Shown here: piece after piece, positions 52,601 through 54,983 of the stretch
How positions within the stretch are numbered: position 1 is the first letter of the stretch
Layout: each line of letters opens with the position of its first letter
Source: Glandiceps talaboti
Taxonomy: Eukaryota; Hemichordata; Enteropneusta; Spengelidae
Direction: 5' to 3'
Length of the DNA stretch: 64,000 bases
NCBI RefSeq assembly: GCF_964340395.1
Contig: NC_135560.1
Location: forward strand, 8,768,598 to 8,832,597
The notes under the pieces: model-generated
The model's database searches: none
What the model was told of the DNA's origin: nothing
What the model saw: only the letters and a program-made list of their open reading frames with translations
Program-made: the position numbers and the translations under genes

Positions 52601-54983
52601 AGACAGACAGACAGACAGACAGACAGAAAGGGACTGAAACAGATTATCTCAACAAAGGGAGACAATCAGGTAAACAAACAGACACAAGGGTTCAGTTTCA
52701 ATTTTTTACTTCTAACAAATATGCTTGGAACATGAACATGACCACAGGCATGCACATAGCTTTAAAAATGGTAATTGCTGTGAACACCAGTTATTCTACA
52801 TTCCACATGCAGTGACGAGCAGTGATGAGCAGTGTTGGCTGAACATGAGATATCCTACTTATCATATGCAGTGATGAGTGGTGTATGAACATGAGATAAG
52901 CTATATATCACATGCAGTGGTAAGTTATGTTGTGTGAACATGAGATACCCTACATATCAAATGCATGCAGTGATTGGCAGATGCCATATTGCAAATTTTG
53001 CATGGGCATTAAAAATGTGACTAAATATCGTGAGGTTGTGATTAAATATTTTGACTTTACACAAAATGTGATCAACAGCGAATTTTATATAACTTTGAGC
53101 AATGCTAAATATCTCATAAAGTGATAGGATATCCTACATATCACATGCAGTGATGGGATATTGCAGTGATGGGATATCCTACATATCACATGCAGTGATG
53201 GGATATCCTACATATCACATACAGTGATGGGATATTGCAGTGATGAGATATCCTACATATCACATACAGTGATGAGATATCCTACATATCACATGCAATG
53301 ATGAGATATCCTACAGATCACATGCAGTAATGAGATATCCTATATATCGCATGCAGTGATGGGATATCCTACATATCACATACAGTGATAGGATATTGCA
53401 CTGATGGGATATCCTACATATCACATGTAGTGATGGGATATCCTTCATATTGCATGTACTGATGGGATATCCTACATATCACATGCAATGATGGGATATC
53501 CTACATATGACATGCAGTGATGAGATATCCTACATATTGTATGTACATGTAGTACTGGGATATCCCACATTTCATGTGCAGTACTAGGATATCCCACATT
53601 TCATGTGCAGTGTTGGGATATCCTACATTTTAGTACATATCACATGTAGTGATGGGATATCCTACATATCACATGCAGTGATGATATATAGTAGATTCAT
53701 ACATATCACATGCACTGATGGGATATCCTACATATCACATGCTGTGATGGGATATCCTTCATATTGCATGTAGTGATGGGATATCCTACATATCACATGC
53801 AATGATGATATATCGTAGATTCATACATATCACATGCACTGATGGGATATCCTACATATCACATGCTGTGATGGGATATCCTTCATATTGCATGTAGTGA
53901 TGGGATATCCTACATATCACATGCAATGATGATATATCCCAGATTCCTACATATCACATGCAGTTATAAGATATCCTACATATCACATGCAATAATGAGA
54001 CATTCACACATAATGATGATATCCTATGTATCACATGTAGTGATGAGATATCCTGCATATATCTCTTGATGAAGCCAACCTACAATCATATCACATGCAG
54101 TGATAAGATATCCTACATATGATATCACATGTAATGATAAGATATCTTACATATTACACACACTACATAGGGACTGATATCCTACATATCACTACCAATA
54201 TCAATACTTCATATGTGGTGAGGAAATATAACATGCAGTGATGAGATATCCTACATATCACATAGTGTGATAGGATAGCCCACATTTCAGTAATGAGATA
54301 TCTAATTACATTATTACATGAAGTGGTGAGATATTCTAAATGTCCTGCTACATATCACATCCAATGATGAGATATCGTACATATCGCATGCAGTGATGAG
54401 ATATCCTACATATCACATGCAGTGATGAGATATCCTACATATCACATGCAGTGATGAGATATCCTATATATCGCATGCAGTGATGAGATATCCTACATAT
54501 CCTACATGCAGTACATGTTCAGTACTATTGCCAGAAGTTGAAAGGCAGCAAACATACATATCATTCCATGCAATTTAACAGATTAAACTAGGGAGTACAT
54601 TTTGTGCATATTAATTGATCATGTGACCTTACAATAGCCAATCACAAGAGATCATACATACTGTGTAACTTTGCCTTTTATGTCAAACTCCAGGGGTTTC
54701 ATGGACTGCCTTACGGTCACACAACCAATGTACTAGACACAAAGGAGAGAGAGATGGAACAGGGGATGGGATGGACAAAGAGAAAGAGAAATGGGTGAAA
54801 ATGTGAGCAACTGACATAATGGAGAATACGTAGAGGCAAAGCAGTGCAAGTGACGAGCTAGACAAGGAGAAACGTAGTTATGTTGGGATGATTTGTACAT
54901 GTATGTACGTACTTGGTAACTTGGCCCCGAACATCAAACTGTAATGTTCTCATGGACTGCTTCACTTCAAGACATCCAACATA
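34688..54983 (-). CDS. SHC1: SHC-transforming protein (SHC adaptor), 3' twelve exons, N-terminus not found
   Basis: Minus-strand exons: 54913-54983 (or alternative 54662-54732), 49348-49408, 47395-47514, 45458-45511, 42947-43125, 41670-41823, 40828-40963, 39269-39457, 37944-38369, 36865-37122, 36174-36433 and 34688-34813. They sum to 2034 nt, 677 residues plus stop, with every phase consistent. The PTB part has [29 protein letters not shown] and [11 protein letters not shown]; the Ser, Lys and Arg that bind phosphotyrosine in human p52Shc (151, 169, 175) are kept. The linker has EPEYYND (the Y239/Y240 GRB2 site) and FDM before the SH2 domain ([30 protein letters not shown]). SHC couples activated tyrosine kinase receptors to GRB2-SOS-Ras. 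The linker is about 390 residues, far longer than the roughly 145 of human CH1. The exon with the PTB start was not found and may lie beyond 64 kb. Which vertebrate SHC1-4 member is closest is not meaningful for an invertebrate. Confidence 0.95.
35570..35735. repeat. GCAGTGCTG-rich imperfect repeat in the last SHC intron
   Basis: Variants of CAGCACTG/CAGTGCTG and TGAATTTCATCACTG recur on both strands, so the region could fold strongly. No coding signal. Confidence 0.7.
35829..36149. mobile_element. MITE-like element, family with GACACAAACTAAAAC arms, copy 1
   Basis: About 60-bp imperfect terminal inverted repeats, starting TACTATCCCAATCGAGG and ending with the reverse complement of TACTACTCTGGCAACTGAGG. 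Both contain GACACAAACTAAAAC / GACACAGACTAAAAC. TA lies at both edges, suggesting Tc1/mariner-type insertion. It ends 25 bp from the SHC SH2 exon (36174). Confidence 0.82.
37944..38369 (-). repeat. Exonic 48-bp minisatellite encoding 16-residue Tyr repeats in SHC
   Basis: The exon is built of about eight units of the form [16 protein letters not shown], one with an insertion of about 18 residues. The Tyr position gives YDNA three times and YIYA, YDYA, HEYA, YNYI and YYEE once each. Reading frame is open throughout and both splice sites are normal. Confidence 0.92.
40346..40440. repeat. Three-copy short tandem repeat in an SHC intron
   Basis: AAACTTTGAGGTCACCGACA followed by AGTAATTATT occurs twice in a row, then once diverged (AATGTTGAGTTCCTCGACA). 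The unit is about 34 bp. Confidence 0.9.
41023..41500. promoter_or_regulatory. Cluster of nine ATGCAAAT octamers in an SHC intron
   Basis: ATGCAAAT occurs at 41047, 41121, 41143, 41188, 41209, 41259, 41395 and 41482, and as its reverse complement at 41061. Weakly periodic surroundings (CCACAAATATGCAAATTACC) suggest an eroded minisatellite. The octamer is the POU/Oct factor site, but function here is unproven. Confidence 0.6.
42100..42310 (+). repeat. Dispersed repeat, copy 2 (partner near 20.0 kb)
   Basis: Same ordered blocks as 19956-20190 (CAGTCTTCAGCTAGTTCTCA, AATTTTTACTAA, GGCATTTTAATCAC, TATCTG). Confidence 0.7.
42562..42889. mobile_element. Fold-back element, about 325-bp imperfect hairpin
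   Basis: Arms pair over most of their length: GCAGATTACTG, TCACTCTCT, GTTTGAT, CAAGAT, TTTCTTG and TACATTTTGTCT occur on the left and in reverse complement, in mirrored order, on the right. The inner stem is GCAGACAT/ATGTCTGC. It ends about 58 bp from the SHC exon at 42947. Confidence 0.85.
43739..44105. mobile_element. MITE-like element, GGTTCCG family, copy 1
   Basis: About 370 bp with imperfect terminal inverted repeats of about 33 bp (GCCTAATAAAAAATAATGTG... against GGCCGAAAAAAATAATTGTT...). Near-complete match in the same orientation to 56938-57323. Confidence 0.85.
45690..46100. mobile_element. Nested inverted-repeat (fold-back) element
   Basis: Outer arms: CATTTACAGCTAAAAC...CAGAAG (45796-45830) and its reverse complement (46058-46090). 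Inner arms: AGTACTTTTATTGCTGAACA (from 45884) and TGTTCAGCAGTAAAACTTCT (46000 side, from about 45963). The left arm is preceded by two more diverged tandem copies from about 45690. Confidence 0.75.
47061..47223. mobile_element. 163-bp MITE with intact inverted repeats and 7-bp target duplication
   Basis: Starts CATAGACAGTGGA, ends TCCACTGTCTATG (perfect 13-bp inverted repeat), and is flanked by the direct repeat ATTTCAC at 47054-47060 and 47224-47230. Confidence 0.9.
47560..48350. repeat. Pentanucleotide (AATAC)n satellite in an SHC intron
   Basis: Degenerate TACAA/AATAC pentamers over about 790 bp, starting about 45 bp upstream (gene strand) of the PTB exon at 47395-47514. The long TYR/CYS-rich open frames here come from the repeat. 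Confidence 0.96.
49658..49686. repeat. Short (ATATG)n pentamer run
   Basis: Five to six TGATA units in a row. Confidence 0.9.
50047..50207. repeat. (CA)n microsatellite, about 80 units
   Basis: Uninterrupted CA run in an SHC intron. Confidence 0.99.
50800..51065. mobile_element. MITE-like dispersed repeat, copy 2 (inverted relative to 33.1 kb)
   Basis: Reverse complement aligns in order to 33130-33425; shared blocks include ACCCTAAAATCAG and GTAATCATGATT. Confidence 0.8.
51222..51605. repeat. Zero-spacer palindrome of about 260-380 bp
   Basis: Centred exactly between 51420 and 51421. The central 28 bp (51407-51434) are a perfect palindrome, GTTTGTTATTGTAC followed by its complement. Pairing continues outward with few mismatches to about 51294/51550 (TTTTATCATG, ACTTGAAAAAT and GTGAAACAA all mirrored) and more weakly to about 51222/51605. 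Confidence 0.9.
52225..52630. repeat. (CAGA)n tetranucleotide cluster
   Basis: Several CAGA runs separated by short linkers; the longest is about 52453-52523. Confidence 0.97.
52800..54515. repeat. 29-bp minisatellite next to the SHC alternative exons
   Basis: Tandem units of TGATGGGATATCCTACATAT followed by CACATGCAG, about 1.7 kb. Part of it (about 53679-53930) shows a 124-bp higher-order repeat marked by GATGATATATNGTAGATTCA. It ends about 150 bp from alternative exon B. Confidence 0.95.
54662..54732 (-). other. SHC PTB alternative exon, version B (Lys form)
   Basis: 71 bp, acceptor with a long pyrimidine tract ending TGTGTCTAG|TAC and donor CA|GTATGT. Encodes [18 protein letters not shown] and continues to KGKVT; same phase and length as version A, 180 bp away. 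The frame is open with conservative replacements, so it is under coding constraint. Joining A to B would shift the frame, so they look mutually exclusive. Confidence 0.88.
54913..54983 (-). other. SHC PTB alternative exon, version A (Arg form)
   Basis: 71 bp, acceptor CACACAG|TAT and donor AA|GTACGT. Encodes [18 protein letters not shown] and continues to RGQVT; the last two bases complete a Lys codon with the next exon. The QSMR arginine corresponds to Arg67 of human p52Shc, a phosphotyrosine contact. Confidence 0.9.

What the first reader, a model, noticed from the sequence alone, without database searches (positions are those of the whole stretch)
54662..54983. Mutually exclusive exons inside the SHC PTB domain, one lacking the Arg67-type contact
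Two 71-bp exons, 180 bp apart, encode alternative versions of the same PTB segment with 13 of 24 residues identical. Both have good splice sites, and 71 is not a multiple of 3, so only one can be used per transcript. Version A keeps the QSMR arginine, known in human p52Shc (Arg67) as a phosphotyrosine contact; version B has QSMK. A splicing switch could tune which phosphotyrosine peptides SHC binds. I know of no such exon pair in vertebrate or fly SHC.
Basis: partly seen in the sequence, partly recalled or inferred. Interest (0 to 1): 0.87.

Follow-up and report, generated by a model that had tools for sequence, protein, structure and literature searches.

The report
Swappable exon in SHC docking domain
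In what is probably an acorn worm, the gene for the signalling adaptor SHC carries two alternative versions of a short exon that shapes its phosphotyrosine-binding pocket, and the reading frame allows exactly one of them per working transcript, so splicing could change what the adaptor recognises; use of both in RNA still has to be shown.

Summary
On the minus strand, 54983-54913 (A) and 54732-54662 (B) are 71-nt exons, 180 nt apart, encoding the same SHC PTB segment (p52 residues 56-79; 13 of 24 residues identical). I found the upstream exon 20.2 kb away, outside the window. Joined to it and the next exon, A alone or B alone is open; A+B stops inside B; skipping both stops in the next exon. 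Between A and B, pS is 0.77 and pN 0.22; 0 of 20,000 neutral simulations from either copy keep this similarity. Both copies look old and selected. No other copy was found in the 590-Mb genome.

'Lacking the Arg67 contact' is overstated: B has Lys. Residues 63 and 76, phosphoinositide-sensitive in human SHC, also differ, so lipid or partner binding may change too. B has the better acceptor, A the better donor. Eight UGCAUG (RBFOX-type) sites lie within 600 nt downstream of B, seven in a minisatellite; RBFOX control is a hypothesis.

Mitochondrial traits suggest a Balanoglossus-like acorn worm. No RNA data or related animal genomes could be examined.

The parts
54913..54983 (-). Exon A (71 nt, starts in phase 0): [23 protein letters not shown]+K; Arg at the position of human Arg67
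54662..54732 (-). Exon B (71 nt, same phases): [23 protein letters not shown]+Q; Lys at the position of human Arg67
54733..54912 (-). Intron between A and B, 180 nt; AG-free stretch of 78 nt before B with a long pyrimidine tract and yUnAy matches at -72 and -64
52831..54512 (.). Degenerate minisatellite (29-nt unit and multiples) downstream of B; carries many TGCATG on the transcribed strand
54567..54572 (-). TGCATG outside the minisatellite, 90 nt downstream of exon B
49348..49408 (-). Next exon E2 (61 nt), joins either version: [20 protein letters not shown]
47395..47514 (-). E3, PTB domain
45458..45511 (-). E4, PTB domain
42947..43125 (-). E5, end of PTB domain
41670..41823 (-). E6, CH1 region with EYYND
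40828..40963 (-). E7, CH1 region
39269..39457 (-). E8, CH1 region, symmetric phase 1-1 (weak donor, model tentative)
37944..38369 (-). E9, CH1 region with repeated YDNAQSK motifs, phase 1-1 (weak donor, model tentative)
36865..37122 (-). E10, CH1 region, phase 1-1
36174..36433 (-). E11, start of SH2 domain
34688..34813 (-). E12, end of SH2 domain and stop

Best explanation
A and B are a tandem-duplicated, mutually exclusive exon pair of the only SHC gene found in this genome. The upstream exon ends in phase 0 and the next exon needs a 71-nt (2 mod 3) piece, so only transcripts with exactly one of the two make full SHC; the other two products stop early and would be expected to go to nonsense-mediated decay (shown for the frame, inferred for decay). 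The swap replaces p52 residues 56-79: the end of strand beta1, the Met66-Arg67 rim of the phosphotyrosine and Y+1 pockets, and the loop into helix alpha2. It keeps the fold and changes pocket and lipid-contact side chains (Arg67 to Lys, residue 68 Thr to Pro, residue 61 Glu to Thr, residue 76 Gln to Lys). I infer that the two isoforms differ by degree in which receptor tails or membrane phosphoinositides they prefer. Regulation is inferred: A has the better donor, B the better acceptor with a distant branch point and a weak donor followed by UGCAUG sites, so B would be the version switched on by an RBFOX-type factor, for instance in nerve or muscle.
For: Homology, position and phase of both exons. 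Upstream exon found and frame tested for four splice outcomes. Saturated synonymous sites with few non-synonymous changes: 12 of 15.5 synonymous against 12 of 53.5 non-synonymous sites; 0 of 20,000 simulations from A and 0 of 20,000 from B with 25 neutral changes reach the observed BLOSUM62 sum of 86. Both isoforms match PF00640 over the same residues, 123.9 and 120 bits. No third copy found in the window plus 40 kb upstream nor in the genome. Arg67 role (PMC5378997 passages); phosphoinositide shifts at 63, 76 and 107 and contacts of Arg67 (PMC4397963 section 12). Eight TGCATG within 600 nt downstream of B, none within 600 nt upstream of A or B; an RBFOX-like RRM gene in the genome; downstream UGCAUG promotes inclusion in vertebrates (PMC5840707 passages).
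Against: No RNA was available: use of either exon is not shown. Both donors are weaker than those of E2-E5, and A has no strict yUnAy match in its AG-free stretch. The 180-nt intron leaves about 108 nt between A's donor and B's best branch-point match, so spacing alone does not forbid joining A to B. No unusual RNA structure: whole region z 0.57, 68 of 100 shuffles fold as well; local hairpin at B 33 of 300. In the simulation with only 12 neutral changes, 3,584 of 20,000 reach the observed score, so a recent loss of use of one copy is not excluded. The alignment is only 71 nt. Seven of the eight TGCATG belong to one minisatellite, six of the eight are also within 600 nt downstream of A, and 86 of 5,000 random 600-nt pieces of the window hold eight or more.
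Confidence: 0.75

Rival explanations
1. The pair is real and both versions are used, but the swap mainly tunes membrane phosphoinositide or protein-partner binding, not phosphotyrosine-peptide choice.
For: Residues 63 and 76, reported phosphoinositide-responsive in human SHC PTB, both differ (K/R and Q/K), and Arg67 to Lys keeps the charge. In NUMB an alternative exon in the PTB domain changes lipid and ubiquitin-ligase binding (PMC11889595 passages).
Against: Residues 67 and 68, at the pTyr and Y+1 pockets, differ as well, and K/R at 63 is conservative.
Confidence: 0.35
2. B (or A) mainly serves as a switch for SHC dose: joining A to B, or skipping both, makes a transcript that is degraded, and the second copy is kept for that.
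For: Both non-single outcomes stop early; the A-B intron is long enough to be spliced.
Against: A poison exon needs no conserved PTB sequence, yet pN is 0.22 against saturated pS and each copy alone keeps the frame.
Confidence: 0.08
3. One copy is an unused relic of an exon duplication.
For: No RNA evidence; weak donor of B. Twelve neutral changes on one copy would often keep this similarity: 3,584 of 20,000.
Against: Open frame, intact AG/GT sites, strongest-class acceptor at B, saturated synonymous sites with 9 of 11 changes conservative, 0 of 20,000 simulations with all 25 changes neutral.
Confidence: 0.1

Closest known systems
Tandem duplicated exon substitution events (mutually exclusive homologous exons; 236 analysed in human by PMC9741552, passages seen)
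   Same: Adjacent homologous exons of the same length and phase, mostly conservative changes, apparently old, one swapped segment inside a folded domain.
   Different: I know of none in SHC or another PTB domain; 'SHC' and 'phosphotyrosine' do not occur in that paper's main text (its supplements were not seen).
NUMB exon 3 (PMC11889595, passages seen)
   Same: Alternative splicing inside a PTB domain that changes partner and lipid binding.
   Different: NUMB's is a cassette insert of 11 residues, not a swap of homologous segments, and lies away from the canonical peptide surface; here the pocket rim itself is swapped.
Human SHC1 (p66/p52/p46)
   Same: Same PTB-CH1-SH2 architecture; exon A matches p52 residues 56-79 with 15 of 24 identities and B with 12.
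   Different: The review PMC5624076 (passages) attributes isoforms to alternative start codons and mRNA splicing and shows no PTB exon swap in the passages seen; the word 'exon' does not occur in its main text.
U2AF1 exons 3/Ab (PMC5224494, listing and start of abstract seen)
   Same: Duplicated alternative exons with unequal splice-site strength.
   Different: Another gene and domain.

Membership tests
SHC adaptor family | N-terminal PTB and C-terminal SH2 in one protein | tested here: met
   PF00640 at residues 110-264 and PF00017 at 696-767 of the joined isoform A
SHC adaptor family | Best solved relatives of the PTB are SHC1 | tested here: met
   1shc, 1n3h, 2l1c, 4xwx at E 8.6e-56 to 6.1e-52 (A) and 9.1e-54 to 6.5e-50 (B); next is ANKS1B near 4e-8
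SHC adaptor family | CH1 linker with the YYN phosphorylation motif | tested here: met
   EYYND in E6; motif recalled and aligned to the recalled human sequence
Mutually exclusive tandem-duplicated exons | Adjacent, homologous, same length and phase | tested here: met
   71 and 71 nt, 46 of 71 nt and 13 of 24 residues identical, 180 nt apart
Mutually exclusive tandem-duplicated exons | Frame kept by either exon alone, broken by both or none | tested here: met
Mutually exclusive tandem-duplicated exons | Both copies under purifying selection | tested here: met
   pS 0.77, pN 0.22; 0 of 20,000 simulations with 25 neutral changes, but 3,584 of 20,000 with 12
Mutually exclusive tandem-duplicated exons | Both isoforms present in RNA and never together | not testable with these tools
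   no transcript data
Mutually exclusive tandem-duplicated exons | Pair conserved in related species | not testable with these tools
   no animal relatives held; scans of bacterial/archaeal and viral collections found none, as expected
RBFOX-regulated exon | UGCAUG in the downstream intron | tested here: inconclusive
   Present at +90, 152, 183, 212, 241, 270, 425, 563 of B, seven of eight in one minisatellite; 86 of 5,000 random pieces of the window hold as many
Exclusivity by steric hindrance | Branch point too close to the upstream donor (roughly under 60 nt, recalled) | tested here: not met
   B's yUnAy matches at -72 and -64 in a 180-nt intron leave over 100 nt

The most novel reading that the evidence does not exclude
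Acorn worms (perhaps hemichordates at large) run one SHC gene as two adaptors: an ancient splice switch, driven in some tissues by RBFOX on a UGCAUG-rich intron, exchanges the rim of the phosphotyrosine/Y+1 pocket and the phosphoinositide contacts and so re-routes receptor tyrosine kinase signalling by cell type, doing by splicing part of what vertebrates may do with several SHC genes.
Probability: 0.25. Interest if true: 0.8.

Novelty: new member of a known kind. Interest (0 to 1): 0.55.

Why it matters
SHC links activated receptor tyrosine kinases to Ras. If an animal with one SHC gene changes the PTB pocket by swapping one 24-residue exon, pocket residues such as Arg67 are tunable in nature rather than fixed, and two natural PTB variants with otherwise identical sequence become available for binding studies. 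It would also add an adaptor domain to the list of protein parts altered by tandem exon duplication, and offers a compact test of whether splicing in a single-gene animal parallels the division of labour among the four vertebrate SHC genes.

Tried and rejected
RNA pairing as the switch: the region does not fold better than its shuffles (z 0.57, 68 of 100). A hairpin between B's acceptor and the downstream intron looks neat, but 33 of 300 shuffles fold as well, and the matching stretch around A gives 173 of 300. Rejected as unproven.

Steric exclusion by branch-point position: not met.

Relatives: bacterial/archaeal contigs (32 pattern matches, none confirmed) and viral contigs (6 pattern matches, none confirmed) gave nothing. 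No animal relatives are held. Rfam: 0 matches over the window. tRNA: 0 genes.

Upstream exon inside the window: a motif scan and a probe search found no convincing match; it lies 20.2 kb upstream, outside the window.

Other splicing motifs: GCATG, TGCACG, ACTAAC, TGCTT/TTGCT and YCAY clusters were counted with TGCATG. Only TGCATG/GCATG stood out, so the RBFOX idea is the best of six patterns.

Literature: Shc with 'mutually exclusive exons' and 'PTB domain' gave 0 papers. Shc with 'mutually exclusive exon' gave 118 papers, 20 listed, none by title about SHC exons. One search gave 0; one search gave 2, unrelated by title; two searches gave 183 and 20 papers, 8 listed each, none by title about such an exon pair. 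One search gave 2, not opened.
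Full report
What is there. Its minus strand carries an SHC adaptor gene. Twelve exon positions lie in the window after A/B or with them (A, B, E2 to E12), and the 5' coding exon lies 20,208 bases upstream of exon A at C13:8844127-8843789, outside the window. The joined isoform A has 790 residues with a PTB domain (PF00640, 123.9 bits) and an SH2 domain (PF00017, 63 bits). The nearest solved structures are human SHC1 PTB chains. A genome search with the PTB gave seven matches, all within this one locus on C13, and a search with B plus the next exon gave three, again all here. 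The tool scores only its best candidates, so these are 'none found', not proof of a single gene.

The pair. Exon A (54983-54913) and exon B (54732-54662) are each 71 nt, 180 nt apart; 46 of 71 nt and 13 of 24 residues agree. Each finds the other in the window at E 3.1e-8 with nothing else better than 0.32. Searching the window and 40 kb upstream with every exon found no other duplicated exon at E 0.05 or better, apart from internal repeats of E9.

Frame. The upstream exon ends in phase 0 and the next exon needs a piece of 71 nt. Of the four combinations, A alone and B alone are open; A+B stops in exon B (...VTNTLVV*), and neither stops in the next exon (...RRGNSQSL*). This is direct from the sequence. 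That the two bad products are degraded is inference.

Selection. By Nei-Gojobori counting, 12 of 15.5 synonymous and 12 of 53.5 non-synonymous sites differ (pS 0.77, pN 0.22, dN 0.27, dS saturated). With 25 random changes put on a copy of A, or of B, 0 of 20,000 runs each reached the observed BLOSUM62 sum of 86, and 7,374 and 8,926 stayed free of stops; 486 and 358 reached 13 identities. With only 12 changes, 3,584 of 20,000 reached the score, so a recent end of use of one copy is not excluded. Nine of the eleven residue differences are conservative by BLOSUM62. I conclude that the duplication is old and that both copies have been kept for their protein sequence.

What the swap touches. In p52 numbering the segment is 56-79 (position 56 of chain 1n3h). 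A and B differ at 57 V/I, 60 L/V, 61 E/T, 63 K/R, 67 R/K, 68 T/P, 70 Q/E, 73 V/I, 74 R/K, 76 Q/K, 79 K/Q. In human SHC, Met66 and Arg67 lie in an SHC-specific insertion, form part of the pocket for the residue after the phosphotyrosine, and Arg67 touches the phosphate group (PMC5378997, passages). NMR of human SHC PTB reports phosphoinositide-induced shifts at L63, Q76 and S107 and contacts with R67 or Q148 (PMC4397963, section 12). Three named residues of the segment (63, 67, 76) therefore all differ between the versions. A is closer to human (15 of 24) than B (12 of 24).

Splicing signals. B's acceptor is strong (top 0.58% of AGs) with a 78-nt AG-free stretch and branch-point matches at -72 and -64; A's acceptor is ordinary (top 6.6%), with no strict branch-point match in its 38-nt AG-free stretch. 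A's donor (top 2.4%) and B's donor (top 11%) are weaker than those of E2-E5 (top 0.07-0.20%) (matrix recalled, for ranking only). Downstream of B, TGCATG occurs on the transcribed strand at +90, 152, 183, 212, 241, 270, 425 and 563, and none occurs within 600 nt upstream of A or B. The first lies outside the minisatellite, the other seven inside it. On the array 52790-54560 the motif occurs 24 times on the transcribed strand and 5 times on the other. A piece of the minisatellite matched only this locus in the genome, in a search that skips very common words. An RBFOX-like RRM is encoded on C6 (92% over 27 residues and 79% over 34). In vertebrates a downstream UGCAUG promotes inclusion (PMC5840707, passages). 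Against this: six of the eight sites are also within 600 nt downstream of A, 86 of 5,000 random 600-nt pieces of the window hold eight or more, outside the array the largest count is seven, and six motif patterns were tried. So RBFOX control of B is a hypothesis. RNA structure gave no support.

Which animal. The mitochondrial contig C40 holds COX1 three times at a spacing of 15,435. One unit has 53% GC; I read COX1-Ser-Asp-COX2-Lys(CTT)-ATP8-ATP6-CYTB-Gly-COX3 from the translations and tRNA calls (all but COX1 named by eye; a further, probably spurious, Lys(TTT) call lies inside ND5). Codons AAA, AGA and AGG occur 0 times in 2,887 codons of eight genes or parts of genes. Balanoglossus mitochondria lack AAA and AGG, have tRNA-Lys CUU and about 50% AT in coding genes (PMC3121625, passages); the same table lists AGA as Ser there, which is unused here. 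The likely source is a Balanoglossus-like enteropneust hemichordate. This is an inference from mitochondrial traits, not a sequence match to a named species.

Known or new. Mutually exclusive homologous exons are a known, old and functionally rich class (PMC9741552, passages; the word SHC is absent from its main text). NUMB shows that splicing inside a PTB domain can change its partners and lipid binding (PMC11889595, passages), but by a cassette insert. I found no report of such a pair in SHC in an open-licence library; subscription papers and genome annotations were not searchable. I therefore file it as a new member of a known kind, with moderate interest.

Noticed in passing
window 38369-37944 (minus): Tentative SHC exon E9 encodes a run of related tyrosine motifs, YDNAQSK three times among others, that look like extra Grb2-type (pYxN) docking sites in the CH1 region; E9 shows internal similarity at E 1.9e-11. 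Its donor is weak.
   Followed up: partly
window 39457-36865 (minus): Exons E8, E9 and E10 are each phase 1-1, so each can be dropped without losing the frame: further isoforms of the CH1 region are possible.
   Followed up: partly
window 52831-54512: A degenerate minisatellite of 29-nt units with TGCATG 24 times on one strand and 5 on the other over 52790-54560; matched only this locus in the genome search.
   Followed up: partly
window 54645-54666 and 54968-54989: The donor region of exon B and the acceptor region of exon A share a 22-nt stretch at 86% identity; origin unknown, perhaps chance.
   Followed up: no
G000 contig C40 (51,222 bases): The mitochondrial contig is a tandem of more than three 15,435-base units, probably an assembly artefact; AAA, AGA and AGG unused in 2,887 codons examined.
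   Followed up: partly
window 50048-50210: Long uninterrupted CA dinucleotide run in the intron after E2; also long GACA and GA runs near 52250-52630 and 63750-63950.
   Followed up: no
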